Positions 1 to 20,949 of a DNA stretch of 20,949 nt are shown here, one piece after another (within the stretch, counting starts at the first letter, position 1; every line of letters starts with the position of its first letter). The notes under the pieces are model-generated. The model searched no databases and had not been told where the DNA came from. It saw only the letters and a list, made by a program, of their open reading frames with translations. Source of the stretch: a virus; IMG/VR virus record IMGVR_UViG_3300030102_004571, positions 1-20,949 of that record; one strand, given 5' to 3'. Position numbers and translations under genes: made by a program.

Positions 1-1470
1 AACAAAATACTTGCTGAACTAATAAGAAACAACAGACTAACAATACTAAAAGCAAGACAGTTAGGTTCAACTACTTTCATTGCTGCTTTCTTATTCTGGA
101 AAACTCTTTTCAATACAAATGAAAGAACAGCAGTTATTGCTCATACCAGAGACGCTGCTGAAAGTATTTTTCTTATTTATAAAAACTTTTATAACAACCT
201 ACCCAACTTCTTACAGTTCTCTACTACTTCCAGTAATGTAAGAGAAATAAACTTCAAGACTGGTTCTAAAATAAAAGTAGGTTCAGCCTCAACTGAGAGT
301 TTCCGTGGTTCTACATACAATAATGTCCACGCTAGTGAGGTAGGTTTCTGGGGTGACGCTGAGAAAACCATTAGTTCTATTTTCCAGACACTAACAGCAA
401 ACCCTACTATTGTATTAGAAAGCACAGCCAATGGCTTCAATGACTTTCACAAGTTATGGCACGACGAAAACGGTATGTCTAAACTGTTTCTCAGTTGGTT
501 AGACGCAGACGACTACCTTAGTTCAGAGAAACCAAAGGCTATACCTGACCAGTTTAGAGCCTACCAAACTATTCCTCAGAAAAGACTAAACTGGGCAATA
601 AAAACATTCTTTGAAAAGTGTGCTGGTAACTGGGCTGTATTCCAACAAGAATACCCTATTACACCAGAAGTTGCTTTTATTACTTCCGGTGACCGCTTCT
701 TTTCTATTTTCTATGACAACTGTCAAACATTTACAGGACTTAAAATTTATGAACCACGCCAAAAATACCATATTTACACTCTTGGGGTTGACACTGCTTC
801 TGGCTCCCCTAATGGTGACTATTCTGCTTTTACACTCATTGACGTAACAAACAAAGAAAAACCTCGTATAGCAGCCACTTACTATGACCGCATTTCACCT
901 CATAACTTTTCAGCATTAGTTTTTGACGTGGCTAAAAAGTATGAAGCCTTAGTGGTCTGTGAGAACAACTCTTATGGTCTTTCAGTTATTGAACGTTTAG
1001 TAGAAATGGGTCAAGGTTTATTTTACAGAACTACAAAGTTCAATAAAACTACCGGTAAATGGAGAGACACTATTGGTTACAATACCAACTCTTCTACCAG
1101 ACCCCTCTTACTTGACCGTTTCCAAAGGTTTATTCACGAAGGTAAGTTGCTTCCTATTTGTCACAGACTACAATACGAAATGAATACTTTTGTTTATAAG
1201 GACGGCATAAAGCCCCAAGCAGACGTAGGAAGCCACGACGACCTTATTTTTGCTACTGCTCTTGCTCTTATTGGGCTAGAACAAATAAGTCAAGTAGAAC
1301 AACACATTCAGAAGCGTGCTCCTGCCAACCTAAAAGAAATGTTAGAGTGGGAAAACGCTACTGGAAAGGTTTATAAAAAGAATGCTCACAAGTTTTATGA
1401 CCCTATGGAGAACTCTCCTCTAAACAAACTAAGAACAGACACACCCACTGCTCAGTGGGGCTTAGACTAG
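1..1470 (+). CDS. terL: Terminase large subunit (5' partial)
   Basis: The reading frame is open from base 1 to the TAG at 1468-1470 and gives 489 residues, so the N-terminus lies upstream. The protein should be the ATP-driven DNA-packaging motor and headful nuclease that docks on the portal. Visible ATPase elements, numbered from the window edge, are a Walker A-like loop KARQLGSTT (17-25), HASEVGFW carrying the Walker B-type Glu113 (110-117), and the coupling motif STANG (141-145). The C-terminal RNase H-like nuclease shows GVDTASGSPNGD with Asp264 and Asp273, then CEN with Glu321, and HDD at 412-414, the usual acidic metal-binding set. The ATG at 475 is internal and not the start. The Walker A loop ends GSTT rather than GKT, a variant known in some phage terminases. 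No small terminase is visible, so it probably lies upstream. Confidence 0.95.
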   Translation, partial: NKILAELIRNNRLTILKARQLGSTTFIAAFLFWKTLFNTNERTAVIAHTRDAAESIFLIYKNFYNNLPNFLQFSTTSSNVREINFKTGSKIKVGSASTESFRGSTYNNVHASEVGFWGDAEKTISSIFQTLTANPTIVLESTANGFNDFHKLWHDENGMSKLFLSWLDADDYLSSEKPKAIPDQFRAYQTIPQKRLNWAIKTFFEKCAGNWAVFQQEYPITPEVAFITSGDRFFSIFYDNCQTFTGLKIYEPRQKYHIYTLGVDTASGSPNGDYSAFTLIDVTNKEKPRIAATYYDRISPHNFSALVFDVAKKYEALVVCENNSYGLSVIERLVEMGQGLFYRTTKFNKTTGKWRDTIGYNTNSSTRPLLLDRFQRFIHEGKLLPICHRLQYEMNTFVYKDGIKPQADVGSHDDLIFATALALIGLEQISQVEQHIQKRAPANLKEMLEWENATGKVYKKNAHKFYDPMENSPLNKLRTDTPTAQWGLD

Positions 1471-1486
1471 GTATGTGAATACTACG
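1471..1486 (+). promoter_or_regulatory. GTATGTGAA element, copy 1
   Basis: GTATGTGAATACTACG begins directly after the terminase stop codon and 41 bases before the next start. It shares the first nine bases exactly with copies at 3150, 5725 and 15477. Position ahead of a gene block suggests a promoter for a phage-encoded or phage-modified RNA polymerase, or an RNA-processing site. The function is inferred. Confidence 0.5.
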
Positions 1487-1511
1487 AACAACTTACATTA
1501 GGAGTAAAGTT

Positions 1512-2360
1512 ATGGACAGAGACAGCGGCGAGTTGAAGGCACTCAGAATAGCCTTAAAAATGTTAGGAAAAACAGACGCAGAAGCAAGCAAGTTTATTGC
1601 TGAAAAAGAAAAGAAAGGCGTAAAGGAAGGTGCCAAGTTAGTTCTTCCCGGTGACTATGACATTTTAGAGAAAGAAGGTATGAGCAAAGACTTTGTAAAG
1701 TCAGTTGCTATGGACATTGGCGAAGGTGCCGCTCTTTCAGCAGCAATGGCTGGTGGTCTGGGTCTTGCCGGACTTGCTGGTAAAGCCGTAGGCAAAGGCG
1801 TCAAAGCCTTGCGTAAAGCAGCCAAAGCCCGTAAAGCAGCAAAGCAGCCTCCTATGAACAGACGCCTTGGACGTTCCACAGCAGACGTAAAAAGAAGCAT
1901 TATGAAAAAGCCTCTCCGCACCGCTGGTGAGCCATTAGAAGAAGGTTTCTTATTTGGAATTAAAAGAACTGGTAACCCAGACAAAGACCGACAACTCCTA
2001 AAACTAAGCAGACAAGCAAAAGCAGAAATGGAAGGTTTCAAAAATGCTAAACCTCGTTCAAGAGCAGCAATAAAAGAGAAAATTAACGAAATTGAAAAGT
2101 CTATGAAAAGAATTAGAGACAGCAAGACAATGCCTGACCCAAGAGTGCCAGCAAAACCAAAAGGAAAGCCTATGACCCCTTCTGACAGCAGTCAAATGAA
2201 ACGAATGGAAGAACTTATTAGTAAAGAAGTTGAACTCAAAAAAGCGGTCCAAACCGCTAAGGGCAAGCCTCGCAACGCAAAAGAAGTTATGGACCTCAAT
2301 GCGCAATTGGACGCCCTTCAAGACGAGTTGGCACCCCTCAAAGAGAAGTTTATGAACTAA
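1512..2360 (+). CDS. Helical, basic phage protein of unknown function (282 aa)
   Basis: I do not recognise this protein. It starts at ATG 1512 behind a good ribosome binding site (AGGAG, about 8 bases upstream) and just after the GTATGTGAA element. Residues about 70-100 are Gly/Ala-rich and hydrophobic and run into a Lys/Arg/Ala-rich stretch (to about 110). Residues about 170-280 are highly charged and likely form coiled coil. Such a mix occurs in small internal-virion or head-associated proteins, but nothing diagnostic is present. Its TAA overlaps the next ATG by one base (TAATG), which suggests translational coupling. It lies between the terminase and the probable lysis genes. A virion role is inferred from context only. 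Confidence 0.7.
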   Translation: MDRDSGELKALRIALKMLGKTDAEASKFIAEKEKKGVKEGAKLVLPGDYDILEKEGMSKDFVKSVAMDIGEGAALSAAMAGGLGLAGLAGKAVGKGVKALRKAAKARKAAKQPPMNRRLGRSTADVKRSIMKKPLRTAGEPLEEGFLFGIKRTGNPDKDRQLLKLSRQAKAEMEGFKNAKPRSRAAIKEKINEIEKSMKRIRDSKTMPDPRVPAKPKGKPMTPSDSSQMKRMEELISKEVELKKAVQTAKGKPRNAKEVMDLNAQLDALQDELAPLKEKFMN

Positions 2361-2650
2361 TGAACCCTAGAAAAGCAGCAGCAGAAAAAATGGCTTTCAA
2401 TAAGCCACGTAGAATAAAGAAAGGCGAACCCGGTTACGGTAAGAAGAAGTTTGTTGTTCTTGCTCGTAATGCTGCCGGTAAGACTAGGCTTATTCGCTAC
2501 GGTGACGCAAATATGGAAATAAAACGAGACGACCCTGACCGAAGAAAGTCATTTAGAGCACGTCATAAATGCGACAGTGCCAAAGACATTCTCTCAGCCC
2601 GGTTCTGGTCTTGTAAACAATGGCGTGCGGGAAGTAAAGTTGAAGGTTAA
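2360..2650 (+). CDS. Small basic Cys-containing phage protein (96 aa)
   Basis: This 96-residue protein starts at the ATG of a TAATG overlap with the gene before. It is strongly basic. The N-terminus is rich in Lys, Arg and Gly. Then come KKFVVLARNAAGKTRLIRYGDANMEIKRD split over residues 29-57, FRARHKC (about 66-72) and ARFWSCKQW (about 80-88). The combination of a RHKC motif and a WSC motif resembles a small conserved protein that I recall from other phage genomes and that has no established function. The two Cys with nearby His might bind metal, but only a pair of Cys is present. Its 3' end may overlap the start of the i-spanin gene in another frame. Confidence 0.72.
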   Translation: MNPRKAAAEKMAFNKPRRIKKGEPGYGKKKFVVLARNAAGKTRLIRYGDANMEIKRDDPDRRKSFRARHKCDSAKDILSARFWSCKQWRAGSKVEG

Positions 2651-2942
2651 TGAAAGACTATTATGGTTGTGTTTAGTAACTGCTATGGCTATTGTTGCTC
2701 ACCACGAGAGAGCAAGGTGTATTACTGCGTATGAAGACCAAAGTCAAAGGCTTACTAAGTTGTCTTACCACCATTGGAAAGTTAAGAAAGAACTTCAAGC
2801 AGAAAAAGAAAAGTCTGCGGACCTTAGAAACAAAGGTCAAGAACTATTCGCCCATTGTAAAAAAATGGGTCAACAATGTAAGAAAGTTATTGAAGGGCGG
2901 CTGAACTGTCGTCCTGTTCAGTTTTTAGAGAGGAACTTATAA
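2640..2942 (+). CDS. Probable inner-membrane spanin (Rz-like)
   Basis: The frame encodes a short N-terminus, one hydrophobic helix (LLWLCLVTAMAIVA), then about 75 charged, coiled-coil-prone residues with several Cys near the end. This is the layout of an i-spanin, which spans the periplasm and pairs with an outer-membrane lipoprotein to fuse the membranes at lysis. The next gene, starting immediately after its stop, encodes such a lipoprotein. The start is uncertain. There is no ATG before the helix in this frame, so I chose TTG 2640, preceded by GGGAAGTAAAG. GTG 2577 would add 21 residues but has no ribosome binding site, and ATG 2682 falls inside the helix. With TTG 2640 the gene overlaps the previous one by 11 bases. 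No Rz sequence signature could be checked, so the call rests on topology and pairing. Confidence 0.62.
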   Translation: MKVNERLLWLCLVTAMAIVAHHERARCITAYEDQSQRLTKLSYHHWKVKKELQAEKEKSADLRNKGQELFAHCKKMGQQCKKVIEGRLNCRPVQFLERNL

Positions 2943-3146
2943 ATGAACTTATTCAAACTATTTTTAGTAGTGTTGTCAGTAAGCACGCTACTTTTGTCCT
3001 GTAAGGGTCCAGACTGCGAAGTCAAATGTTCAGGACACAAATGCTCTTGTGAGAGTAGACCCGCTGAAAAAGAAGACAGTGTAGACAGTCCAAAAGAAGT
3101 CACTCCAACCAAGTTACCTTGGGACGTAGTGCCTTGTGACAACTAA
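2943..3146 (+). CDS. Probable outer-membrane spanin lipoprotein (Rz1-like)
   Basis: This 67-residue protein has a classic lipoprotein signal: Lys5, a hydrophobic core from residue 6 to 18, and the lipobox LLSC with Cys20 as the lipidated residue. The mature part would be about 48 residues, with five further Cys (25, 29, 34, 36 and one near the C-terminus), and an acidic, Pro-containing tail. It begins directly after the stop of the probable i-spanin, with GAGAGGA upstream as ribosome binding site. A small lipoprotein directly behind a one-helix coiled-coil protein fits a two-component spanin, which implies a Gram-negative host. Alternatively it could be a lipoprotein for superinfection exclusion, but the pairing favours lysis. 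Confidence 0.68.
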   Translation: MNLFKLFLVVLSVSTLLLSCKGPDCEVKCSGHKCSCESRPAEKEDSVDSPKEVTPTKLPWDVVPCDN

Positions 3147-3149
3147 ATT

Positions 3150-3166
3150 GTATGTGAAAAAATACA
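3150..3166 (+). promoter_or_regulatory. GTATGTGAA element, copy 2
   Basis: GTATGTGAAAAAATACA begins four bases after the o-spanin stop and 77 bases before the scaffold start. The nine-base core is identical to the other three copies. The distal part differs: a longer A tract, then TACA in place of TACGA. The element is followed directly by a hairpin and T-rich run, so any transcript starting here would have a structured leader. Confidence 0.5.
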
Positions 3167-3167
3167 A

Positions 3168-3204
3168 AGAGTGCCGCCCACTCTGAGGGGCGTTTTATTT
3201 TATT
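3168..3204 (+). terminator. Intrinsic-terminator-like hairpin with an alternative stem
   Basis: The stem CGCCC (3175-3179) / GGGCG (3188-3192) is followed by TTTTATTTTATT (3193-3204), as in an intrinsic terminator. A second stem, AGAGTG (3168-3173) / CACTCT (3179-3184), shares base 3179 and overlaps the first, so the two cannot form fully together. It could simply end the terminase-to-spanin transcript, or act as an attenuator before the scaffold and capsid genes. The stems are short, so strength is uncertain. Confidence 0.5.
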
Positions 3205-3226
3205 GGCGTAAAAAAGGAGAATTATT

Positions 3227-3988
3227 ATGTCGTATTTGTCAGAAGACAGGGCGACGGAAATGCTCGCCAAACTCCGAGGAGAGCCTGAACAGGCTGTTCA
3301 AGAACCGGAAGTTGTTGAGGAAACCGTTAGTCCGCAGGTAGAACCAGACGTAAAACAAGAGGCTTCGTCAGCCGAACCTGAGCAGGAAGAGGGTGGTCAC
3401 AACGTTCCTTACCAAAGGTTTCAGCAGGTTATTTCTGCTAAAAACCGTTTACAGGAAGAAAAAGAACGTTTAGCCAGCCAACTCCAAGAACTTCAAACCC
3501 AGTTTGAAACCAACAACAACCGAGTAGTGGACAAAGTAGAAACTGTTAGTGACACATTCACTGACGACTTTGGCAGTGAGGGAGACGAAGGAGACGACCG
3601 TTATAGCGCATTAGAAAGTAGAGTTCAACAGTTTGAAGTCTACAAAGAAGAAATGCTTCTTGAAAAAGAACTACAAACAGTCGCCCAAGAGTTTCCACAG
3701 GTTCCCAGAGAGTTGCTACTACAAGCGGTTATTGACGACCCAAGCGCAGACTTATTGGAAGTAGCAGGTCATTACACCACTTATGTGGCTCAGGTTGAAG
3801 AACAAGCCATTGCCCGTTATGTAAAGGACAATGACATTCAAGTTCCAAAACGTGGAGCAGCAGCAGGTGGTTCGTCAGGTGGAGGGAAGGCTTCTAGCCA
3901 ACTCAACGCAGGACAAAAAGAGAAACCAAAAACAATTAAAGAGGCTACTAGTCGCTTCAAGTCGTTTTTGAAAAATAACCCATTTTAG
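3227..3988 (+). CDS. Capsid scaffolding protein
   Basis: This 253-residue acidic protein directly precedes the major capsid gene, the normal place for a scaffold. Residues about 15-55 are very rich in Glu, Pro, Val and Gln and probably disordered. HNVPYQRFQQVISAKNRL (about 58-75) is typical of the VPY-x-RF segment seen at the start of the coiled coil in podovirus-type scaffolds. A Glu/Gln-rich coiled coil follows to about residue 95. The C-terminal 40 residues are Gly-rich, then basic (ATSRFKSFLKNNPF), suiting the usual capsid-binding helix-turn-helix tail. The start at 3227 has AAAGGAGA upstream. The protein should guide coat assembly and leave before DNA packaging. No protease gene or protease domain is seen nearby. 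Confidence 0.83.
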   Translation: MSYLSEDRATEMLAKLRGEPEQAVQEPEVVEETVSPQVEPDVKQEASSAEPEQEEGGHNVPYQRFQQVISAKNRLQEEKERLASQLQELQTQFETNNNRVVDKVETVSDTFTDDFGSEGDEGDDRYSALESRVQQFEVYKEEMLLEKELQTVAQEFPQVPRELLLQAVIDDPSADLLEVAGHYTTYVAQVEEQAIARYVKDNDIQVPKRGAAAGGSSGGGKASSQLNAGQKEKPKTIKEATSRFKSFLKNNPF

Positions 3989-4012
3989 CAAACATTACAG
4001 GAGGAAAATAAA

Positions 4013-5287
4013 ATGGCAGCAAGCATTACAACATTAGACGCTATTCTAAAAGAGTTCTACTTAGGACCAATTGAAGAGCAACTAAACAACGAAACAATGG
4101 TCATTGACCTATTTGAAAAAGCCACGGTTGACTGGCAGGGTAAGAATGTTATTATTCCTATTCACCTCAGCCGTAACTCAGGTGTTGGCTTCAAAGCCGA
4201 AGGCACCACATTCGCTGGCGCAGGCATTGCCGCTGGTAACCAAGGCTACGCCCGTATGGTCGTAACCGCAAAGTTCCTTTACGGACGCTTTGAACTCTCA
4301 GGACCAGCAATTGCTTCCGCAAAAACTGGTGCTAACTCATTCGCTACTTACATTGAGGCTGAAATTAATAAGTTGGTCACAGACGTTCGTAACGAAAGTA
4401 ACTTCACAGCCATTACTGGTGGTGCTGTTATTGGTCTTTGCTGGTCAAAAGGCAACGGCGTAACTAAGCAATACTCAGGACAGAGCACAGGTCTAAACGC
4501 ACTCGGTGGTGCTACTGACACTTGCCGTCTCCGCTTGGTCCGCACTGGCGAACTCTTTGGCGCACAGCGTGTCATTGCCGCAGTCACTGAGACTGCTATT
4601 GAGTTCACAGTCGCCATTAACACTTCCATTGGTCAGGTTGACGCTGCTGGTAACGCAGTTGTCGCTGGTGACGTTTTCGCAGTTGAACTAGACGCTACTT
4701 CAACAGTCAAAGACAACGCTGGTGCTAACGAAGTTACTGGTATTTGGGGCAACCTCTTCGCTGGTGAGCACTTCGGCATTGCCCGTAACACCAACACGGA
4801 ACTCATTTCCACTGCCTTCACGGTTTCCAAGGGTGACGTTTACGCCGCTCTAAACCTTGACAGCATTCAGAACATTCTGGACGAAATGCTCCTCCGTGCT
4901 GACGAAGAGCCAACCGTTATGGTTATGAACCCAGTTATGCGTGTAGAATACACCGCTCTCTTACAGGGTGTTGGCGCAGCCAACCTCTACAAAGACTTGA
5001 CTGGTGCTCAGAATGGTGACGCAGGTTTCACTTCCTTGGGTTACGCTGGTATTCCAATGAAGGTTACTCGCCACGCTCCAAAGGGAAGCATTATGTTCCT
5101 ATGTCCTAAATACTGGCGCTTGCTAGAATTGGACAAGAAGGGCTTCGCTGACCTTGACGGTTCCATTCTTAGCCGTGTCGCAGGTGCCGGTGCTACCGAC
5201 GCTTACGAAGGTTATTACAAATGGTATTATGAGGTAGTGTGCCACCGTCCAAACGCAAATGCTGTTTTGACTGCGGTTCAGTTCTAA
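4013..5287 (+). CDS. Major capsid protein
   Basis: This 424-residue protein follows the scaffold behind the strongest ribosome binding site in the window (AGGAGG, 7 bases before ATG 4013). Its layout fits an HK97-fold coat protein: an N-terminal helix (TTLDAILKEFYLGPIEEQL), a Gly/Ala-rich loop with KAEGTTFAGAG (about 62-72), a long helix-rich spine region (about 105-135), a beta-rich insertion (about 165-260), and a C-terminal part with MVMNPVMRVEYTALL. It lacks the runs of charge seen in the ejection proteins. Codon use differs from the neighbours: all 15 Arg codons are CGT or CGC with no AGA or AGG, Ile is ATT, and C-ending codons such as CTC, TTC and GCC are frequent. That fits selection for very high expression. 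Assignment rests on context and overall layout more than on a single motif. Confidence 0.9.
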   Translation: MAASITTLDAILKEFYLGPIEEQLNNETMVIDLFEKATVDWQGKNVIIPIHLSRNSGVGFKAEGTTFAGAGIAAGNQGYARMVVTAKFLYGRFELSGPAIASAKTGANSFATYIEAEINKLVTDVRNESNFTAITGGAVIGLCWSKGNGVTKQYSGQSTGLNALGGATDTCRLRLVRTGELFGAQRVIAAVTETAIEFTVAINTSIGQVDAAGNAVVAGDVFAVELDATSTVKDNAGANEVTGIWGNLFAGEHFGIARNTNTELISTAFTVSKGDVYAALNLDSIQNILDEMLLRADEEPTVMVMNPVMRVEYTALLQGVGAANLYKDLTGAQNGDAGFTSLGYAGIPMKVTRHAPKGSIMFLCPKYWRLLELDKKGFADLDGSILSRVAGAGATDAYEGYYKWYYEVVCHRPNANAVLTAVQF

Positions 5288-5316
5288 TAGACTAACTTCA
5301 TAGTTTATGCTATAAT
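5288..5316 (+). promoter_or_regulatory. Sigma70-like promoter with extended -10
   Basis: TGCTATAAT (5308-5316) is a perfect extended -10 element. Seventeen bases upstream of TATAAT lies TAGACT (5288-5293), matching four of six bases of the -35 consensus. It sits just after the capsid stop and would drive the GIY-YIG gene. The start site would fall near 5323, inside the left arm of the hairpin that follows, so transcripts from it would not form that hairpin whole. Confidence 0.55.
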
Positions 5317-5344
5317 GGGGGGTAGGGTTTCGGCTCTACCCCTC
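5317..5344 (+). terminator. Strong hairpin after the capsid gene
   Basis: GGGGTAG (5319-5325) pairs with CTACCCC (5336-5342). Further G-T and G-C pairs extend it at both ends, leaving a loop near TTCG. This is the most stable hairpin seen in the window. No uninterrupted T run follows (TCATTACATTT), so it may be a partial terminator or a structure protecting the 3' end of capsid mRNA. Either would help set a high capsid level relative to downstream genes. Confidence 0.5.
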
Positions 5345-5363
5345 ATTACATTTAAGGAACATT

Positions 5364-5732
5364 ATGCCATACAAAGACATTGAACAACGACGACAATACC
5401 AACGAGACAAAAGAAAGAACTGGAAGAAACATAACCACGTTACACCATACGTTTATGCTATTGAGTTTCCAGACGGTGCTATTTACTTTGGTTACAGCAA
5501 ACAACGTTACAGGTTTGGACAACACTTTCATAAAAATGCTAAATGGTCTGAGGCAACTAAACACGCAGTAAATAATGGCTTCTCAAAGGAAGAATGCCTT
5601 TTCACTAAACTATTTATTTGTGAGGACTTAGAGGAAGTAAAGAGGTGGGAAGCAGTCATTATTTTTGACAATGTTGACGACCCTCTAATGCTCAACACAA
5701 CCATACCCAGACCACCTCTGAGTAGTATGTGA
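5364..5732 (+). CDS. GIY-YIG-like endonuclease (small, free-standing)
   Basis: The 122-residue protein begins MPYKDIEQRRQYQRDKRKNW, the basic N-terminal helix style common in phage homing nucleases. A GIY-YIG-like core follows: YVY (29-31) in place of GIY, AIYFGYS with YFG (41-43) in place of YIG, then RYRFGQHF supplying Arg50 and His54, and WEAVII with Glu96 at the place of the metal-binding Glu. The family cuts DNA; free-standing members often act as homing endonucleases that spread themselves. It lies between the capsid gene and a membrane-protein gene, with its own sigma70-like promoter, and has GGAAC upstream as a weak ribosome binding site. Its TGA stop lies within GTATGTGAA copy 3. It obeys the same GAT/ATC absence as its neighbours, so it has probably been resident for a long time. 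No split gene or intron is visible in the window. Confidence 0.68.
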   Translation: MPYKDIEQRRQYQRDKRKNWKKHNHVTPYVYAIEFPDGAIYFGYSKQRYRFGQHFHKNAKWSEATKHAVNNGFSKEECLFTKLFICEDLEEVKRWEAVIIFDNVDDPLMLNTTIPRPPLSSM

Positions 5733-5740
5733 AATACGAG
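5725..5740 (+). promoter_or_regulatory. GTATGTGAA element, copy 3
   Basis: GTATGTGAAATACGAG overlaps the end of the GIY-YIG gene: its TGA stop (5730-5732) lies inside the element. It precedes the next start by 26 bases. Compared with copy 4 (GTATGTGAATAACGAG) only two of sixteen bases differ. If it is a promoter, the leader before ATG 5751 would be very short and has no clear ribosome binding site. Confidence 0.55.
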
Positions 5741-5750
5741 GTTTTATTTT

Positions 5751-5936
5751 ATGTCACCAGTTTTAGAGTTCTTCTTAGTTATAAATTCAGTTATTGTAGC
5801 AGCACTTCTTTGGACCCAGTTGTCCATAGCAAGACATAAACTAAAACAAATAGAAAAAGAACAACACTCACGAGACTTGGTGGACATTGCCGGTATTGCT
5901 GACGTGTTTGCTTTGGAGGAAAACAATGGCGGGTAA
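5751..5936 (+). CDS. Small single-helix membrane protein (61 aa)
   Basis: Residues about 4-25 form one hydrophobic helix (EFFLVINSVIVAALLWTQLS), followed by a basic and then acidic, probably helical, cytoplasmic or periplasmic tail. No clear ribosome binding site precedes ATG 5751, where TTTTATTTT is found. It is the first gene after GTATGTGAA copy 3. Its end overlaps the start of the next gene by 11 bases in another frame. A small protein with one membrane helix and a charged tail could be a holin or a holin regulator, since no other holin is seen, but the spanin genes lie 2.6 kb away and no lysin adjoins. The function is not established. Confidence 0.58.
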   Translation: MSPVLEFFLVINSVIVAALLWTQLSIARHKLKQIEKEQHSRDLVDIAGIADVFALEENNGG

Positions 5937-6333
5937 ATACGAGAAAGTTCTAGCAGCAAGCAGACTTCAACGACAACAAAAAAAAGAAAAAGGTGCTTCA
6001 TTAGGAAACATTCTTTCTCTAATAGGAACCGTAGTAGGAACTAAGTTTGGTGGTCCAGTCGGTGCTTCTATTGGTTCAGGTCTAGGCAAAGCCGTTGGTG
6101 GCTTCGTAGGTGGAGACAAAGAAGCAATGGTAGAAGGCGCAGGAACAGCCGCAGGAGGCGTTATGAAGGCTAAGGCAAAGGCAGGTGCCTTGAAGTCTCT
6201 TATGACCGGTCTAGAAGGCGCACAGAGCCTCGCAGCAGCAAATGCTTTGGTCAAACAGTCTAAGGTAGACATAAGCAAACTAGACGACGAGAACAGAAAC
6301 AAAATTATGGCACTAATAGGTAGGTTACAATAA
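5926..6333 (+). CDS. Glycine-zipper protein, probably virion or pore associated (135 aa)
   Basis: I chose ATG 5926 because GGAGGA lies just upstream (5915-5921); an in-frame upstream start at 5887 has no such site. The N-terminal 25 residues are very basic. Residues about 26-70 are hydrophobic with small residues at regular spacing (IGTVVGTKFGGPVGASIGSGLGKAVGGFVGG), a glycine-zipper pattern typical of proteins that insert into or pack within membranes. The C-terminal half is Ala-rich and helical. The TAA overlaps the portal ATG by one base. Position before the portal and the composition suggest a small virion protein, perhaps one that enters the host membrane at DNA ejection; a holin-like role is an alternative. 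I know no family name. Confidence 0.68.
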   Translation: MAGKYEKVLAASRLQRQQKKEKGASLGNILSLIGTVVGTKFGGPVGASIGSGLGKAVGGFVGGDKEAMVEGAGTAAGGVMKAKAKAGALKSLMTGLEGAQSLAAANALVKQSKVDISKLDDENRNKIMALIGRLQ

Positions 6334-8243
6334 TGAGTAAAATTTGGCATAAAATTCAAGGCAGTATTACTGCTGCTGACAGCGCAAAAAGCATTGACAA
6401 AAGAAAATGGGAACTAGCCCAAATGTTTTTGGAAGGAAGACAACACATTTCCTACGACAGAAACTTGGCTAAATACGTTACTGCTAGGGCACAGGCTGGT
6501 AAACAACAAGTTACAATTAACCTTATTCTAAACATTTACAGAAACATTGTTGCTCGTTTGACTACTGCTTACCCAAGCATTCGTATTGTTCCAGCCTCAC
6601 CTCTTGCTGACGACATTGTAAAAGCAAAAGCAAGTGAGACAGCCATTCGTTATTGGTGGCAGCAAAGCGAAATGAAACAAGTTTTACAGAAATGTATTCA
6701 AGACTTGCTTATTTGTGGTAATGCTGGTTTATTTCAGTTCTATGACCCAGACGCAAAAGAGGTAAAAATACGACACGTTTCACCTTACGACTTTTTCTTT
6801 GAAAAGAACTCTTCTGGTATGGAAGACAGCACGTTTGTTGCTATTCGTTCTTATGTAACAAAAGAGCAACTACAAGAAGACTTTCCCAACAAAGCAGAAG
6901 AACTACAAGGTGTTTCATACGCTACAAACACAACCTCACAATACACTCACCCTGTTCCAGAGGACAGAGTAGAACTTTATGAAACTTACCTACTAAAAGG
7001 TAAAGACAAAGGACGTTATGCTCTTATGGTTGGTTCCACAGTTCTTTTTGAAGGTAGAACCCCTGACAACATTATTCCTTTTCAACACATTCGTTACACT
7101 AGTGTTCCAGACAAAATGTGGGGTATGAGCCTTATTTACCCACTCATTGAGTTACAGGCGCTTTACAACAAAGCAAGAGCCTTAGTAATGGAGAACGCTG
7201 CTGTTATGACTAACCCTAAGTGGCTTATTCCTACAACAGCAGGTGTGTCACCTAATGCTATTACAAGCCAACCGGGTGAGAAAATATTCTACAACCCTGC
7301 TGGTGGTGTTCCACAGCAAATTGGTATGGCTCCTATGCCGGGTTATGTTTTCCAAAACATTTCTTCTATTCAACAGGAAATGCTAGACATTTCAGGCATT
7401 CACTCAACTACATTGGGTAAAAGAACAGTAGGTATTCAGTCTGGTAAGGCTATTCAGGCTATTGCTGAACAAGACCTTTCACAGTTAGTTTTTACACAAA
7501 ATAACATTGAGTATGCTTGTAAAGACGTAGCAGAAGTTGTTCTTACTTTTATGAAGGCTTTTTACAAAGAAAGTAAAATGACTAGAATGCTTGACGCTTA
7601 TGGCGGCATTATTTTCAAGGAAGTAAAAAACACTGACTATGTAGACACTCCCGAAGTGTTTATTGAAAGTGGTTCTCTCTTCCAGCACCAAGCAGAAGGC
7701 AAAGACAAGAAGGTCTTGGAAATGCTCCAACTCCAACTTATTACAAAAGAAGAGGCTATGGCAGCACTTTCATTCTCTACTGGTTCAACATTTGCCTTGG
7801 AGAAAATGGCTGCTATGACACACGCACAGCAAATTCTAGAAGCAGCAATAGAAGGAGCAGAGGTAGAAGTCTATGCCACAGACGACCTACAAGTGTTCCA
7901 GAAGGTCTTCGCAGACTTTATGCGACTACCAGACTTCTACAACCTAGAACAAGAGCGTCAGGACTACCTCAGCGACGTTTTTGTTTCAATGGTAGAGTTT
8001 AGCCAAGCACTGGCAACAGGAAAACAAAGTCTAAGAGACAAAGTGTTCCCAAGCATTCCAAAGGGAAGTGACGAAAGTTCTATTCCTAAAATTGCTTTGA
8101 ACCAACAAAGTCCTGTTAGTTCTACACAAGTTCTTGAAGAAGCAGCAGACGGCTTACAAGTTCAGAAAATGGTTCAAGCCGCAAACAGTTTGAGAGCAGT
8201 TCCCAACTCTAACTTAGAGGGAAACGCTGAGGGAGGAGTATAA
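6333..8243 (+). CDS. Portal protein
   Basis: This 636-residue protein has the sequence style of podovirus-type portals: an N-terminal helical region (REGRQH-like LEGRQHISYD at about 32-41), VTINLILNIYRNIVARLT (about 59-76) followed by PSIRIVPASP, a helix-rich wing with GNAGLFQFYDPD (about 129-140) and VSPYDFFFEKNSSGMED, then the segment IRYTSVPDKMWGMSLIYPLIELQALYNKARALV (about 252-285), which matches the conserved P-x-x-x-WG-x-S-x-x-x-x-x-x-x-x-Q stretch of many portals. The C-terminal part is helical and Gln/Glu-rich. As a dodecamer it would form the vertex for terminase docking, DNA passage and tail attachment. It starts at the ATG of a TAATG overlap, with a weak GGTAGG upstream. It lies downstream of the capsid gene, which is unusual. 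Confidence 0.93.
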   Translation: MSKIWHKIQGSITAADSAKSIDKRKWELAQMFLEGRQHISYDRNLAKYVTARAQAGKQQVTINLILNIYRNIVARLTTAYPSIRIVPASPLADDIVKAKASETAIRYWWQQSEMKQVLQKCIQDLLICGNAGLFQFYDPDAKEVKIRHVSPYDFFFEKNSSGMEDSTFVAIRSYVTKEQLQEDFPNKAEELQGVSYATNTTSQYTHPVPEDRVELYETYLLKGKDKGRYALMVGSTVLFEGRTPDNIIPFQHIRYTSVPDKMWGMSLIYPLIELQALYNKARALVMENAAVMTNPKWLIPTTAGVSPNAITSQPGEKIFYNPAGGVPQQIGMAPMPGYVFQNISSIQQEMLDISGIHSTTLGKRTVGIQSGKAIQAIAEQDLSQLVFTQNNIEYACKDVAEVVLTFMKAFYKESKMTRMLDAYGGIIFKEVKNTDYVDTPEVFIESGSLFQHQAEGKDKKVLEMLQLQLITKEEAMAALSFSTGSTFALEKMAAMTHAQQILEAAIEGAEVEVYATDDLQVFQKVFADFMRLPDFYNLEQERQDYLSDVFVSMVEFSQALATGKQSLRDKVFPSIPKGSDESSIPKIALNQQSPVSSTQVLEEAADGLQVQKMVQAANSLRAVPNSNLEGNAEGGV

Positions 8244-8246
8244 AAA

Positions 8247-8960
8247 ATGCTAGCAGAAGAAGTAGCAAACTTATTTAGAAAATACACTGACGAAAGTGAC
8301 ACAACGTTCTTGTCTGACGCAGACGTTGCCTTATACCTTTACTTAGGTTACAGTGACTTCCGTCAGGAAATTGAAAACATTGACAGTTATGCTTACAAAA
8401 AAACCGCAAGTTACACAACAGTAAACCAAGAACTAGACTTAGCCACAGTGGCAGCAGCCATTGGACCTAAAATTATGGGTGCTTCACCTACTGTTGCTGA
8501 CGACAAAGTAAAAAGTATTCTAAGAGTTTATGTTACTGAGGCTGGTCAAACTGACATTCAGTTCTTTCTAACACCAGTTCAGAACAGAGAAGCACTTTAC
8601 TCAGTCCCAAATGACTACCTAACTAAGTATTGTTTAGAAGGAACAACCCTTTTTCTTTCAAACTCACCATTTAGTTCCCCAGTAGCCATTGACTACCAGC
8701 CCATTACTCCAACAACTGTTTTTACCACAACGACTATTCAGCCGGGTCAAAACCAATACATTGACGAGTTTGAGGCTTTTCACGACCTTATTGCCCTTTA
8801 TGCTTATGAACAATACGCTATTAGGGACGTTGCTGACAACCCACAACTAACTCGTAGGTTTGTTTTACGCAGACAAATGCTCAGAGACTTCATTACTCGT
8901 GGTCGCTTAGAAAGAGCAAACCGCTTCGTTATTTCAGACGACGCTTACTTTGTAACATAG
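8247..8960 (+). CDS. Head-to-tail adaptor (connector) protein
   Basis: The 237-residue protein starts at ATG 8247, three bases after the portal stop, behind a strong GGAGGAG site. The N-terminus LFRKYTDESDTTFLSDADVALYLYLGYSDFRQEIE (about 8-42 in sections) and the later FEAFHDLIALYAYEQYAIRDVADNP (about 175-199) resemble the helical core of podovirus adaptor proteins such as T7 gp11 and P22 gp4, which ring the portal and connect it to the tail. The middle is beta-rich (LFLSNSPFSSPVAIDYQP). The gene order portal, adaptor, tail hub supports this. No motif is unique to the family, so the call combines helix pattern and context. Confidence 0.75.
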   Translation: MLAEEVANLFRKYTDESDTTFLSDADVALYLYLGYSDFRQEIENIDSYAYKKTASYTTVNQELDLATVAAAIGPKIMGASPTVADDKVKSILRVYVTEAGQTDIQFFLTPVQNREALYSVPNDYLTKYCLEGTTLFLSNSPFSSPVAIDYQPITPTTVFTTTTIQPGQNQYIDEFEAFHDLIALYAYEQYAIRDVADNPQLTRRFVLRRQMLRDFITRGRLERANRFVISDDAYFVT

Positions 8961-8970
8961 GAAATAAATA

Positions 8971-11853: not shown

Positions 11854-11858
11854 CTATT

Positions 11859-12139: not shown

Positions 12140-12141
12140 CA

Positions 12142-15475: not shown

Positions 15476-15476
15476 T

Positions 15477-15492
15477 GTATGTGAATAACGAG
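15477..15492 (+). promoter_or_regulatory. GTATGTGAA element, copy 4
   Basis: GTATGTGAATAACGAG begins two bases after the stop of the 586-residue gene and 39 bases before the next ATG. The distal part forms a small inverted repeat with what follows (AATAAC, GA, GTTATT, 15484-15497). It separates beta-rich virion genes from the ejection-protein genes, as expected of a unit boundary. Confidence 0.55.
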
Positions 15493-15515
15493 TTATTTTT
15501 TAGAGGAGAAGGTAA

Positions 15516-16241
15516 ATGACAACAACCCTAACAAAGTTTGCGACCCAACCATTATTAAAAATGGCACAAGACAAAACTAAAAAGAAAAGAAAGAAAAAGT
15601 TTGACGAAGACGTAGCAGAACTAAGTGAATTTACTGAGCCTCTTTTACAAAAGGCTGCTGAACGTAGAGCAGAACGAGAAAGAAACCAAGCATTAGTTAG
15701 AGAAGGACTTCAAGACCAACTCAGAGCCGCCAGAGAAGGTGTAACAAGAGTTGAAAGAGCAGGCAGAGTTGGACAACAACAAGCCGTTGAAGAAGGAGCC
15801 TTAGCAAGAACTCGTTTGGCTACTCCAAGAGGTTTTGGAACAGGTGCTGCCGCACTAGGTGCCGGTCAAATTGCCGCTCAAACAGCAAGAGCAAGACGAG
15901 ACATTGAAGCAAAAACTGGTTTGGCTATGACTGAGGCTGAAAAAGCAGAAGCAATGGCGAAGAAAGCAGTTGCCACTGAAAGAGAAGACCTCGCAAAAGC
16001 AGAAGACGCACAAGCACAACTAGCCCGTGACGCAGTAGCAGCAGCAGAAACTCTATTCAACACTGCTGTGAATAACGTGTATGTATTCTTTACAATGGAA
16101 GACCGTAGAGCAGCCGCTAGGAAAATTAGAGAACAAATTCTAGCAGGTGAAACAAACGAGGCTGTCATTAGGGCAGTAGAAAACTTCCTAAAAGAAACAG
16201 TTCTGAACCCCAACCACGACGCTGCTGGTAAAGTAGGTTAG
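15516..16241 (+). CDS. Probable internal virion (ejection) protein, small (241 aa)
   Basis: ATG 15516 follows a very good site (AGAGGAGAAGG); a later ATG at 15561 has none. The protein is almost wholly helical: a basic N-terminus with KKKRKKKF (about 22-29), long Glu/Arg/Ala coiled coil, then TPRGFGTGAAALGAGQIAAQTARARRDIEAKTG (about 102-134), the short Gly-Ala turn between helices that I associate with podovirus internal virion proteins (T7 gp14 or P22 gp7 type). The C-terminal 40 residues include MEDRRAAARKIREQI. First gene after GTATGTGAA copy 4 and first of three such genes in line. Such proteins leave the virion into the host envelope to form a DNA channel. Assignment is by pattern and order. 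Confidence 0.62.
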   Translation: MTTTLTKFATQPLLKMAQDKTKKKRKKKFDEDVAELSEFTEPLLQKAAERRAERERNQALVREGLQDQLRAAREGVTRVERAGRVGQQQAVEEGALARTRLATPRGFGTGAAALGAGQIAAQTARARRDIEAKTGLAMTEAEKAEAMAKKAVATEREDLAKAEDAQAQLARDAVAAAETLFNTAVNNVYVFFTMEDRRAAARKIREQILAGETNEAVIRAVENFLKETVLNPNHDAAGKVG

Positions 16242-16267
16242 TCTCAAAACACAAAAGGAATAATAAA

Positions 16268-18658
16268 ATGGCAAGAGTAGTAAAAGGAAGAACACCATAC
16301 GCACAAGGCACTAGTAAGTTTGAGGCTTTTAGACCTGACCAAAGGCAATACAATAACCCACAACAACTTTCAGGCTTTCAGCGTTTATTACAAATAATGA
16401 AAGTAGCAGAGACTATTGGTAAAAGTCCACTCTCTGGTTTATTAGTTCAAGGTGTTCAGAAGTTAGCAGAAGGCGCAACTCCTACACTAACCGAAGCCGC
16501 TGCTGCTAGGAAAGGTGTTCCAACTCCCGAAGCACAGGCTCCACAGCCAGCCGCAAAGACTACTATTGACGAACAAGCAGCACAGTTTGTAAAACAAGCA
16601 ACCTCACAACCCGCTCAGACTACAATGTCACCTGCCAAAATGACTGTGAAGCCAACACAGCAAATGGACAGAAGCGCAGACACTACTCAAAAGAACATTG
16701 AAGAGTTTCGTGCTCGTGCTTACCGCTCACCGGTTCAGTATGCTCCAAGTGACGTGGCTCGTATTCTACAAACAAGTGGTATTTCAGGCATTGACGACAG
16801 AGTTTTCAACCAAGTTGTTGCTATGGTTGCTGACAAACAAAGTCGTGAAGGTGGCATTTCTATGGAAGACATTGAAAGTCTTGCTGTTCGTGTTTCTTCT
16901 GGTCAACCATTTGCCGTTGAAGAAACTGAAAGTGTTGAAATGGCTCAAAGAGAAGCAAACCAAAGACGCAACCAAGCACGTTTCACTGAACTTATGAGTG
17001 AAAGAAAAGCAAAAGAAGAACTCATTGACCGTATGGAAGCACTTCCACCTAAACTAAGAACAAGAATGCGTATGCTTATTCGTAACGAAAGTCCTGTTGC
17101 TATTCAAGACTTTCTTACAGCACTTAGAGCAAGACGAGCACAAAGTTTTTTTGGTGAAGAAATAGCCACAAAAGGCAGAATGGCAGTCCCACAGGTTGAA
17201 GGTGAAGAAGAGTTATACGACGTTATGGCTGACTACCTAAGACTTATGAAAGGTGTTGCTGTTCCAGACTACAATGCTGACGTTGCTGAGAGAGGTCGTG
17301 TAGCAGAACCCGACTTACCCACACCACGTCCTGCTGAGACAACCGAAGTAGAAGACTTACAAGCCCAACGTAGAGGAGAAGCAGAAAGAAGCCGTGAAGC
17401 CGCAACTGCTGCGTTAGAACAACCAGCCGTTCCTTCTATGGCAGACGCTATTCCAAGACAGGGACCAGTTCCTTTTGGACCAGAACAAATAGACAAAATA
17501 GTTTCCGCCGCTATGTTCGCTGACCGTCAGCCCATTCCTGACCAAAAAGCGACAGACACCTCAGCAGCGGCAACCCCAGAGCAACCAGCAGAAGCCCCTG
17601 TCACCCCCGCTCCTGTTGAAGAAACTGTTGACACCGAAGCAGTAGAGGTCGTAACTCAACCTCCTGCCGTAAGACGTTTAGTTGCCGGGGCTGAACCACA
17701 AGCAGCGAAAGACTTCAACCAGTTATTCGCTAATGCCCGTAGAGCAGTTACTGCCGCTGACCAAGCAGCCGTCTTAGACCAAGTTGCTAATGTTCGCTTA
17801 CCAGCAAGAAGTTTCTTTGACTTTATGTTTGACGGACCACAGCAAAGAGCCAGAGCAGAACTACTCAAAGCATTCCCCAAAGGAAGTAAACCAAGAACAC
17901 AAAGCCAACAACTCGCTGACTTGGCACTTGCTGAACTTAGACAAGCACAAGCCAAACGTGCTACTGCTCAGGCTACTGAGGTTGAACCAGCAAGAGCAGA
18001 AAGTTTTAGACAAAAAGCAGCAGTTAGTAAAGAAAAAGCAGAGGCTCGTTCACAAGACAAGTCTATTACACAAAGTATTATTGACAAAAACTTGGCTATG
18101 GCTAAGAGGGCTTTACGAGCACCACGTTTTAGAGGTTCTGGTAATACAGCCAAACGTATGAGAAATACTGAAATTGAAAACGCAAGACGTGCTGCTGAAA
18201 GAGAAATTAAGTCACGTTTTAGCACAAAAGACATTGACGCAGAGCAAAATAAAACAACTACACAAATTCAGCGACTTCAAGCAGCCGCTAGTGGCACCGT
18301 CGCCAACCCCGGTAAGGGACCAGACAGACCCACAAAAGGTCGTGGTGAAACTAACAAACGGTTTGCCGAGCGACAAAAGGCTTTCGCAAAAGAAAACGCT
18401 TCATACTTGAAACGCAAAAGTGAGTATGACAAAGACCAAAACCGTAAAAGACAAGTTGCTAAGACAGTGAAAGCATTAGAAAAGCGACAAGCAAAACTAA
18501 ACAAGGAAAGAAGGTCTAGACTAAAAAGTCAACAGTCAGCACTACGCAAACTAAACAATGACGCTGACAAACTAAAAGGTGGAGCAAGTGCTCAACTACG
18601 CTCACAGTTAGAAACGAGAAGAAAAAGCGAAGAAGAAGACCAACTCAAAGGTAAATAA
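16268..18658 (+). CDS. Probable internal virion (ejection) protein, 796 aa
   Basis: ATG 16268 follows AAAGGAATAATAAA. The protein is very rich in Ala, Gln, Arg and Glu. Residues about 75-140 are Pro/Thr/Gln-rich and likely disordered. A more folded part spans about 140-330 (YAPSDVARILQTSGISGIDD, MEDIESLAVRVSSGQPF). A second Pro/Ala/Glu-rich linker (about 380-470) is followed by a region around SFFDFMFDGPQQRARAELLKAFP (about 515-537), and the last 200 residues are strongly basic, charged coiled coil. There is no signal peptide or membrane helix. It lies between two other long helical proteins in the order small, medium, large, as in the ejection-protein cassettes of podoviruses. No lytic transglycosylase motif was found. 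Confidence 0.62.
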   Translation: MARVVKGRTPYAQGTSKFEAFRPDQRQYNNPQQLSGFQRLLQIMKVAETIGKSPLSGLLVQGVQKLAEGATPTLTEAAAARKGVPTPEAQAPQPAAKTTIDEQAAQFVKQATSQPAQTTMSPAKMTVKPTQQMDRSADTTQKNIEEFRARAYRSPVQYAPSDVARILQTSGISGIDDRVFNQVVAMVADKQSREGGISMEDIESLAVRVSSGQPFAVEETESVEMAQREANQRRNQARFTELMSERKAKEELIDRMEALPPKLRTRMRMLIRNESPVAIQDFLTALRARRAQSFFGEEIATKGRMAVPQVEGEEELYDVMADYLRLMKGVAVPDYNADVAERGRVAEPDLPTPRPAETTEVEDLQAQRRGEAERSREAATAALEQPAVPSMADAIPRQGPVPFGPEQIDKIVSAAMFADRQPIPDQKATDTSAAATPEQPAEAPVTPAPVEETVDTEAVEVVTQPPAVRRLVAGAEPQAAKDFNQLFANARRAVTAADQAAVLDQVANVRLPARSFFDFMFDGPQQRARAELLKAFPKGSKPRTQSQQLADLALAELRQAQAKRATAQATEVEPARAESFRQKAAVSKEKAEARSQDKSITQSIIDKNLAMAKRALRAPRFRGSGNTAKRMRNTEIENARRAAEREIKSRFSTKDIDAEQNKTTTQIQRLQAAASGTVANPGKGPDRPTKGRGETNKRFAERQKAFAKENASYLKRKSEYDKDQNRKRQVAKTVKALEKRQAKLNKERRSRLKSQQSALRKLNNDADKLKGGASAQLRSQLETRRKSEEEDQLKGK

Positions 18659-18661
18659 TAA

Positions 18662-20949
18662 ATGGCGACACTCCGAGAACAAATAAGACAGTTCAATGAA
18701 GAGGGCACCAAAGAGCAAACAAACACACGACTGAGAGAACTTTATTCAGTTGACGACTTGTCTGCTCTGGTGCCTTTCTTAGACAGGGAAACAACAGAAC
18801 TTACAGAAATAATGTCAATGGCGTTTCCGGTAGGCTCACCAACTACCTCTCAAACGCCCGTGAAGGCACCTACAACGGACGCAAAGGAACTTACCCTACC
18901 AACTCCCCCTCCACAAGAAAAGGAAGCCGTAGAACCGCCCGTAGAAGCCGTTAGTTTACCGGGTGAAGTAACCCCTCAACCTGACCCTATTTTAGAAGCC
19001 CCCCGAAAGAAACCTGAACCTAGTGGTTTTGAAATGCCGGGAACGGTTCGTGTTCCTGTTTTAGAAGAAGCAGGTATTATAAAACCTTTTAGTGGTGACC
19101 CAGACACAGTATTATTAGACGTTGGTCCTTCTGCTGAGAAGTTTTCTGGTATTTTAGTTGGTTTGGTTGACCAAGGTTTTGCTGTTGGTGCTACTTTCTT
19201 AGAAGCAATGGCAGCAGGTATTGGTATACCCGGTCAAATGGACATTACTGTTCCTATTAAAGACGACCCTATTAGAGAAGCAGACCGCAAAGCAAAGTTG
19301 AACAGAGTTCTAAAACTTGCTGTTGAGTTTGACAAAACATTCAAAGAAAAAGAAGAGAAAGTCCAACAAGTAACAGACGCTACCGGTCCTATTGACGCAA
19401 CCTTTGGCTTTTTACAAAACACAGCAGGCGACGTAAAAGACATTTTACTTGGTCTTGGCACTCTACTAAATGAAGTTGGTGGTTTAGAAGCCCGTCGTGC
19501 TGGAACTGGAAGAAGAAAAGGTGGTCAAAAGTTTGGTCAGGAAATGGCTAAGGGTATTGCTCTTATTACTGGTGCTACTTTTGAAGGTGCTGAGGACGTT
19601 GGTGACGTTGAAGGTGCCCTTACTGGTTTAGCAAAGTCATTTGCTGCTAGACCACTCACTACTCTGCTTACTCTTCACCCTGTTATAAAAGCAGGACAAA
19701 GAGGAGCCAACACTCTTCGTCAACAAAAACTTTATGCTGCTGCTGAACAAGCCTCACAAAGAATGTGGGAAAAGTCAGGAGCAAAAGGACGCTGGCAAGA
19801 CGTTACTGAAATGTCAAGAAATAACCCTGCGTCACAAGCCCTTGCTCGTTTTTATAAAAACATAGACGAAGTGGGCACTCGCCTCTTGGAAGACCCAACA
19901 CAAATGGCTACACCAGAGGCTACACGAATAGCACAAAGAGTTATTGACGAACCAAGGCAAGCAAGAGAACAAGTTGCCGCAAGAACAGAAGGTTTGAAAA
20001 GAGAAATAGGTCGTGAGCCACCGGTAGACCTAACACCCGAGTTAGAAACAAGAGTTGCTCAACCAACTGGCGAACAAATGGCACAAGCGTTTGACGTAAG
20101 AGCAGGTAGTAGAGAACCGTTTTCTGTTAGTCAAGAAAGACTAAATACAATAATAGAAGAAAGCATAAAAAACCCTGACGAGTTGGCTGCTTACCAAAAA
20201 GTAAAAGCAGAGTTTGACACTCTTTCAGGACAACAAATACAAGTTGGTCCACGCAGAGCAGACTTAGTTTTAGACACTGGTCTTGGTGGAGCATTTGACG
20301 CTGTTCTTAGAAGTAAAGGTATGGAGGGTCAAGTTGTTACAGACATTGCTAGACAAGCAGCAGACTTTGTTAGAGCAGCCAAAAGAGACGGCGTAAAACG
20401 ACCAGCCTCAGTTACAAAAGCAGCCATTTTAGAAATAATAGACAACGTAGACGCAACCATAGCAGACAACCTTTCCGCTAGGGAACTTACTGCTCTTACT
20501 AAGTCAGCACAAAGACAAGCACTTCGTCTTGACTTACAAGACTTACTGAGCGACTATGCCGGTGACACAACCCGAGCACCCAAGGTTCGCACACAACAGT
20601 TTGACATTACAGCAGAAGGTGTTGTTAGACAGCCCTTTACAAGAAGAAGACTAGCCAAAGAAGCAATAGAAATTTACCAAGACGCTCAGTCATTTGCTGA
20701 ACTTACAAAAGACTTAGCGTTTAGAGGAGTAACTACGGCAGACAGAGCCGTTGCCAGAACAAGACTTGGAGAACGAGGAACAAGAGGTTTAGGTCCAAGA
20801 CTAGACTTGCGACAAGCAAGAGCATTTTACCCAGAGTTAGACAATGTTGTTTCTTTTGTAAATGAACAAGTCAGACAAGTTTTACCAAAAGGAGAAAACG
20901 TTGAGGTTGGACCTTATTCTACAAATGCTCTTACAGCACGTTTTATTGA
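18662..20949 (+). CDS. Large probable ejection protein (3' partial, at least 762 aa)
   Basis: The frame starts at ATG 18662, three bases after the previous stop region, with AAAGG upstream, and remains open to the end of the window. Residues about 60-130 are Pro/Glu-rich and probably disordered. A hydrophobic Gly/Ala stretch (SGILVGLVDQGFAVGATFLEAMAAGIGIPG, about 163-192) and further small-residue segments (DILLGLGTLLNEVGGL, about 256-271; PLTTLLTLHPVIKAG, about 331-345) could insert in or cross a membrane. After residue 350 it is helical, with Arg and Gln abundant. This fits a large ejection protein that forms part of a channel across the host envelope, but it could also be a tape-measure-like tail protein. 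No enzyme domain is seen in the part visible. Confidence 0.65.
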   Translation, partial: MATLREQIRQFNEEGTKEQTNTRLRELYSVDDLSALVPFLDRETTELTEIMSMAFPVGSPTTSQTPVKAPTTDAKELTLPTPPPQEKEAVEPPVEAVSLPGEVTPQPDPILEAPRKKPEPSGFEMPGTVRVPVLEEAGIIKPFSGDPDTVLLDVGPSAEKFSGILVGLVDQGFAVGATFLEAMAAGIGIPGQMDITVPIKDDPIREADRKAKLNRVLKLAVEFDKTFKEKEEKVQQVTDATGPIDATFGFLQNTAGDVKDILLGLGTLLNEVGGLEARRAGTGRRKGGQKFGQEMAKGIALITGATFEGAEDVGDVEGALTGLAKSFAARPLTTLLTLHPVIKAGQRGANTLRQQKLYAAAEQASQRMWEKSGAKGRWQDVTEMSRNNPASQALARFYKNIDEVGTRLLEDPTQMATPEATRIAQRVIDEPRQAREQVAARTEGLKREIGREPPVDLTPELETRVAQPTGEQMAQAFDVRAGSREPFSVSQERLNTIIEESIKNPDELAAYQKVKAEFDTLSGQQIQVGPRRADLVLDTGLGGAFDAVLRSKGMEGQVVTDIARQAADFVRAAKRDGVKRPASVTKAAILEIIDNVDATIADNLSARELTALTKSAQRQALRLDLQDLLSDYAGDTTRAPKVRTQQFDITAEGVVRQPFTRRRLAKEAIEIYQDAQSFAELTKDLAFRGVTTADRAVARTRLGERGTRGLGPRLDLRQARAFYPELDNVVSFVNEQVRQVLPKGENVEVGPYSTNALTARFI

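What the first reader, a model, noticed from the sequence alone, without database searches (positions are those of the whole stretch)
1..20949. Trinucleotide GAT/ATC appears entirely absent
Reading every line, I found no GAT and no ATC on the given strand, hence none on either strand. At this composition several hundred of each would be expected in 20.9 kb. The effect crosses all frames: every Asp codon is GAC, no Ile codon is ATC (only ATT and ATA), no start or internal ATG is preceded by G, and intergenic stretches obey it too. So it is not codon bias. GATC avoidance alone is common in phages, but loss of the whole non-palindromic triplet is not what a usual Dam-type or 4-base restriction enzyme would select. 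Candidate pressures: a host system reading GAT, such as a modification and nicking or cleavage system with 3-base non-palindromic specificity (SspABCD phosphorothioation at CCA is a known precedent for 3-base recognition), several overlapping systems (GATC, GANTC, GATN-type), or a phage DNA modification chemistry that makes GAT costly.
Basis: partly seen in the sequence, partly recalled or inferred. Interest (0 to 1): 0.93.

Follow-up and report, generated by a model that had tools for sequence, protein, structure and literature searches.

The report
Phage genome with no GAT triplet
A phage genome fragment of 32.8 kb, and a fragment of a clearly diverged relative, contain not one copy of the three-letter word GAT (or ATC), apparently because something in their bacterial hosts attacks DNA at GAT, which would be a restriction target shorter than, and shaped unlike, almost all known ones.

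Summary
GAT and ATC occur 0 times in the window and in the whole 32,833-bp virus record (about 1,155 expected from composition, 494 by Markov model). All eight GATN/NGAT words, all codon positions, both strands and 3.7 kb outside gene calls obey it. The proteome lacks the four dipeptides that cannot be coded without GAT (MM, MI, WM, WI: 0 against 20.4). A relative in another metagenome (L003; portal 80% aa identity, 44% of fourfold sites different) also has 0 of 155. All 35 Asp residues conserved between the two are GAC in both, while 35% of conserved Asn/His/Tyr/Phe codons differ. Selection is active and DNA-level; artefact and codon bias are rejected. Among 122 other phage loci GAT obs/exp is 0.68-1.82. 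In L003 most of these are normal, while GAT (and GANTC) stay at zero. Best explanation: a host restriction-like defence reading the 3-bp non-palindromic site GAT (R-M, nicking or Ssp-like). Agent and host were not found.

The parts
1..20949 (.). Whole window: no GAT and no ATC on either strand; also no AGCT, CATG, CGCG, GGCC, GTAC, TCGA, TGCA, GANTC, CCWGG, CTNNAG or GAGNCC. The same holds for the rest of the 32,833-bp record.
1..1470 (+). Terminase large subunit, cut at the left end of the record
   Evidence: phrog_2 terminase large subunit, E 1.4e-29
4013..5287 (+). Major capsid protein; 67-75% aa identity to L003
   Evidence: NCBIfam capsid_maj_Podo 2.8e-36
5364..5732 (+). Small probable GIY-YIG / homing-endonuclease-like gene inserted after the capsid gene; absent at the same place in L003; also GAT-free
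   Evidence: weak PADLOC homing endonuclease match E 0.0025; L003 sequence
6333..8243 (+). Portal protein (P22-like); 80% aa identity to L003, used for the codon comparison
   Evidence: phrog_156 portal 2.9e-44
8247..8960 (+). Head-tail gene, 74% aa identity to the end of L003

Best explanation
The phage lineage has purged every GAT because its hosts carry a DNA-targeting defence that recognises the 3-bp, non-palindromic double-stranded site GAT/ATC and cuts, nicks or blocks DNA whose GAT sites lack the host's mark. GAT-bearing progeny are lost, so new GAT mutations are continually removed. The host would protect its own GATs by a modification (methylation or phosphorothioation). Shown: total absence on both strands, in coding and non-coding DNA, kept up over long divergence, in a genome with the same zero counts for about a dozen typical restriction sites. 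Inferred: that the agent is a host defence, and that it reads GAT as a modification-guarded target.
For: 0 GAT/ATC of about 1,155; all GAT-containing 4-mers zero; both strands, genes of both orientations and non-coding DNA, so a double-stranded DNA target and not RNA. Relative L003 also 0 of 155; 0 of 35 conserved Asp codons differ against 48 of 136 for Asn/His/Tyr/Phe, so continuing purifying selection. The same genome is at zero for AGCT, CATG, CGCG, GGCC, GTAC, TCGA, TGCA, GANTC, CCWGG, CTNNAG and GAGNCC, the usual mark of restriction pressure; elimination is known mainly for orthodox Type II sites (PMC6286503). Three-base specificities exist: phosphorothioation C*CA and C*AG (PMC11931770) and virus nickases CCD and RAG (PMC7019647).
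Against: No host is known, and no enzyme or modification with GAT specificity was found. Clearing over a thousand sites is a long path, since the first few losses help little. Only one long and one short genome are in hand, so a phage-borne cause is not excluded. Non-Type II systems are rarely escaped by complete site loss.
Confidence: 0.5

Rival explanations
1. The cause is carried by the phage: it makes a nuclease or nickase that cuts GAT to destroy host DNA or rival phages, and its own genome is safe because it has no GAT instead of carrying a protecting mark.
For: GAT-zero follows the phage lineage (record and L003) while most other site losses do not. Two GIY-YIG-type genes in the record. 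Virus-encoded 3-base nickases exist in chloroviruses (PMC7019647).
Against: One of the two GIY-YIG genes is absent at the same place in L003, and both look like homing enzymes, which normally have long sites. L003 is only 4.4 kb, so gene content cannot be compared.
Confidence: 0.2
2. A host toxin that modifies single-stranded DNA at GAT or ATC during phage replication, such as a DarT-type ADP-ribosyltransferase, has been escaped by losing its target word.
For: EPEC DarT reads a 3-nucleotide target (TTT/TCT; PMC7003065), and acting on single strands during replication would hit both strands.
Against: No DarT with a GAT motif is known to me. Phages are known to escape DarTG by protein changes (own knowledge). 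A modified base would probably be tolerated at low density, which argues against exactly zero.
Confidence: 0.1
3. Several ordinary restriction systems (GATC, GANTC and various GATN or NGAT sites) overlap and together remove GAT.
For: The host range clearly includes many restriction specificities, and GATC and GANTC are both at zero.
Against: All eight GAT-containing 4-mers are at zero, 121-339 expected each, which would need at least four asymmetric 4-bp systems with no gap. L003 lacks most other losses and still has 0 GAT. Phages with GATC fully eliminated (L009, L073) keep GAT at 0.7-0.8.
Confidence: 0.07
4. A mutational process, such as a context-specific base editor or deaminase of the host, converts every GAT instead of selection removing it.
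For: GAC and GGT, the products of one transition in GAT, are more frequent than the Markov expectation.
Against: GAC and GGT are also what selection would leave behind. Conserved Asp residues stay Asp (35 of 35), and no enzyme of such completeness is known to me.
Confidence: 0.04
5. Sequencing or base-calling artefact, for example a modified base turning GAT into GAC.
For: None found.
Against: Seen in two independent contigs. ATC read as GTC would turn Ile into Val GTC, yet GTC is only 72 of 688 Val codons and Ile is present as ATT/ATA. It would also have to erase about a dozen other motifs.
Confidence: 0.01

Closest known systems
Restriction-site elimination in phages under orthodox Type II R-M systems (Rusinov et al. 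2018, PMC6286503)
   Same: Complete loss of short DNA words on both strands; the same genome has lost at least seven 4-bp palindromes as well as GANTC, CCWGG and CTNNAG.
   Different: GAT is 3 bp and not palindromic; orthodox Type II sites are usually 4-8 bp palindromes.
SspABCD-SspE phosphorothioation defence (C*CA) and related 3-base phosphorothioate motifs (C*AG)
   Same: A 3-base asymmetric DNA target used in anti-phage defence.
   Different: No GAT motif is reported there, and no Ssp genes or host are linked to this phage.
Chlorovirus nicking enzymes Nt.CviPII (CCD) and Nt.CviQXI (RAG)
   Same: Virus-related enzymes with 3-base asymmetric sites (PMC7019647).
   Different: Viruses of green algae; different words; no such enzyme has been identified in this phage.
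GATC (Dam/DpnII-type) and GANTC (CcrM/HinfI-type) avoidance
   Same: Both sites are at zero here.
   Different: They cannot remove GATA, GATG or GATT; phages that lost GATC keep GAT near 0.7-0.8.
DarT DNA ADP-ribosyltransferase toxins
   Same: Three- or four-base DNA target words on phage-relevant ssDNA (PMC7003065).
   Different: Different target words; acts on single strands; not known to be escaped by loss of the target word.

Membership tests
Elimination of a DNA restriction site by a phage | Observed/expected of the site below 0.1 | tested here: met
   GAT 0 of about 1,155 in the record and 0 of 155 in L003
Elimination of a DNA restriction site by a phage | Strand-symmetric, and holds in non-coding DNA | tested here: met
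   0 GAT and 0 ATC in genes of both orientations; 0 of 134 expected in 3,698 non-coding bases
Elimination of a DNA restriction site by a phage | Host carries a restriction system with this site | not testable with these tools
   Host unknown; genome-contig scans found no related prophage
Orthodox Type II R-M site | Palindromic recognition site of 4-8 bp | tested here: not met
   The lost word is the asymmetric triplet; every 4-mer containing it is zero
GATC and/or GANTC avoidance only | GATA, GATG and GATT remain | tested here: not met
   All at 0, with 242-339 expected each
RNA-level avoidance (mRNA interferase, tRNA or codon bias) | Loss only on the coding strand or in one codon frame | tested here: not met
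   All frames, both strands and non-coding DNA
Ssp-type phosphorothioate defence | Host ssp genes and a phosphorothioate at the triplet | not testable with these tools
   No host or modification data
Phage-encoded GAT nuclease | Nuclease gene present in all GAT-free members | tested here: inconclusive
   Two GIY-YIG-type genes here, one absent at the same place in L003; L003 is only 4.4 kb

The most novel reading that the evidence does not exclude
There exists a bacterial anti-phage system with a 3-bp, asymmetric double-stranded target, GAT/ATC, acting strongly enough to make a phage lineage give up a trinucleotide, and with it the dipeptides MM, MI, WM and WI, across its genome.
Probability: 0.45. 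Interest if true: 0.92.

Novelty: new variant of a known kind. Interest (0 to 1): 0.87.

Why it matters
A whole trinucleotide missing from a DNA virus lineage is, as far as I know, unreported. It points to a DNA-recognition system with much denser targets than the usual 4-6 bp restriction enzymes, and it shows that natural genomes can live without one Asp codon, one Ile codon and four dipeptides. It is directly testable: find the host and read its modification at GAT. The same genome gives a map of about a dozen further specificities acting on it, among them CTNNAG, which I do not recognise as a known enzyme's site.

Tried and rejected
Searches for more relatives: capsid, portal (this phage's, L003's, and a profile), terminase and the 960-aa protein against viral contigs gave only L003; genome contigs gave none; a hand-made portal motif gave 34 further loci, none related and all with normal GAT. 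The named-phage collection gave only relatives near 25% identity, and the four I counted (Cellulosimicrobium phage DS1 and three Manatee Spring phages) have normal GAT. RNA-level avoidance rejected (strand symmetry, minus-strand genes, non-coding DNA). Codon bias or tRNA supply rejected (all frames, non-coding, dipeptides). CRISPR PAM avoidance rejected on general knowledge: PAM pressure acts only at spacer targets and cannot clear 1,155 sites. GATC/GANTC union rejected. Artefact rejected. Attempts to infer the methyltransferase's specificity from sites kept in its carriers gave no common site. Named phages chosen as hard cases (Pelagibacter HTVC010P, Nostoc A1, Microcystis LMM01, Helicobacter KHP30, Pontimonas phiPsal1) have GAT at 0.90-1.14. 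Literature searches found no report of a phage lacking a trinucleotide.

Full report
What is there. The window is bases 1-20949 of a 32,833-bp virus record, ending exactly at a 10-base N gap. It is a fragment of a tailed phage with podovirus-type head genes: terminase cut at the left end, capsid, portal and a long block of plus-strand structural-type genes. After about 25 kb the genes turn to the minus strand and include an N6/N4 DNA methyltransferase (record 27,022-28,146; Pfam N6_N4_Mtase 3.6e-36) and a GIY-YIG gene. No DNA polymerase was recognised among the proteins scanned and no tRNA was found in the window, so the genome is probably incomplete.

GAT 0, ATC 0 in the window and in the other 11.9 kb. 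Expected about 1,155 by composition and 494 by a dinucleotide Markov model. No other trinucleotide is near zero (next: CGA/TCG 0.41). All eight 4-mers with GAT are zero, each with 121-339 expected. By codon: Asp 504 GAC, 0 GAT; Ile 306 ATT, 116 ATA, 0 ATC. In 3,698 bases outside my gene calls: 0 of 134. Because Trp and Met codons end in G and Met and Ile codons begin with AT, a GAT-free genome cannot encode MM, MI, WM or WI; indeed 0 occur against 20.4 expected, while ML, MV, MF, IM and II are at expectation. The rule therefore constrains proteins as well.

It is kept up by selection. One relative was found, L003 (IMGVR_UViG_3300032277_001806, 4,369 bp; portal 80%, capsid 67-75% aa identity). 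It has 0 GAT against 155 expected. Between the two, 44% of fourfold sites differ; of 136 conserved Asn, His, Tyr and Phe residues 48 use a different codon, but of 35 conserved Asp residues none does; at a 35% rate the chance of 0 in 35 is about 3 in ten million. In the methyltransferase, homologues from other phages use GAT for 6 to 10 of the 13-14 shared Asp residues where this phage has only GAC, so a gene of a widely shared family is clean as well. The GIY-YIG-like gene after the capsid gene, absent from L003 at that place, is also GAT-free.

It sits in a genome purged of restriction-like sites. AGCT, CATG, CGCG, GGCC, GTAC, TCGA, TGCA and (inside GAT) GATC are at zero, each with 62-120 expected; so are GANTC (120), CTNNAG (120), CCWGG (36) and GAGNCC (36). 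ACGT, CCGG, CTAG and CTNAG are present. Such elimination is the known answer to orthodox Type II systems (PMC6286503: 7.1% of their sites eliminated, under 0.5% for other types). In L003 most of these sites are at normal numbers (AGCT 25, GTAC 13, CTNNAG 15, CCWGG 8), while GANTC, CGCG, CATG and TCGA are at 0-1. GAT is therefore separable from the palindromes and is, with GANTC, the zero that the two share most strongly.

How unusual. In 122 other phage loci of at least 4 kb, GAT obs/exp is 0.68-1.82, and the lowest value of any trinucleotide is 0.10, for TAA in one locus. Phages that carry the nearest relatives of this methyltransferase (L008-L011, L013, L054, L073) show heavy multi-site purging too, up to eight palindromes plus CTNNAG and CCWGG, but GAT is normal in them, even where GATC is fully lost (L009, L073). 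So the purging regime is shared by several phages; the triplet loss is not.

Mechanism. A double-strand, DNA-level agent that reads GAT is the simplest reading: strand-symmetric, independent of frame and transcription, separable from GATC. Given that the same genome answers about a dozen restriction-type pressures in the same way, I take the agent to be a host defence with a 3-bp asymmetric site, its own GATs being guarded by a mark. That last step is inference. Three-base specificities are known for phosphorothioation (C*CA, C*AG; PMC11931770), virus nickases (CCD, RAG; PMC7019647) and DarT on ssDNA (TTT/TCT; PMC7003065), none at GAT. The rival that the phage itself carries a GAT-cutting enzyme cannot be excluded, because L003 is too short to compare gene content and no host is known.

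Limits. Statements on the absence of precedent rest on my knowledge and on a library of open papers only.

Noticed in passing
window 1-20949 and whole record: AATT, ATAT, TTAA and TATA are strongly but not fully depleted (45, 7, 28 and 49 against about 234 each by composition), as if older, weaker or partly guarded targets.
   Followed up: partly
whole record; L009, L010, L054: CTNNAG, a gapped palindrome that I do not recognise as a known restriction site, is at zero in this record and in three phages of other lineages that carry a related methyltransferase.
   Followed up: partly
whole record, both strands: GAGNCC/GGNCTC, an asymmetric 6-bp pattern, is at zero (36 expected) in this record; two of its four forms contain other lost sites (GAGTC, GGCC), so the real site may be GAGMCC or GAGNCC.
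   Followed up: partly
L008, L009, L010, L011, L013, L054, L073: Phages from other lineages that carry the nearest relatives of this methyltransferase have lost many 4-bp palindromes at once (up to eight in L009), suggesting a guild of phages on hosts rich in restriction systems.
   Followed up: partly
L009:7393-9906; record 27,022-29,178: A small cassette, HTH-type small protein, then a GIY-YIG gene, then the N6/N4 methyltransferase, lies in the same order in L009 and in this record, although the rest of the gene content seen differs.
   Followed up: no
record 30,000-32,833 (outside the window): The right end of the record differs from the rest: few long genes, 15 of the 49 TATA, no AATT, TTAA or ACGT in the last stretch counted.
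   Followed up: no
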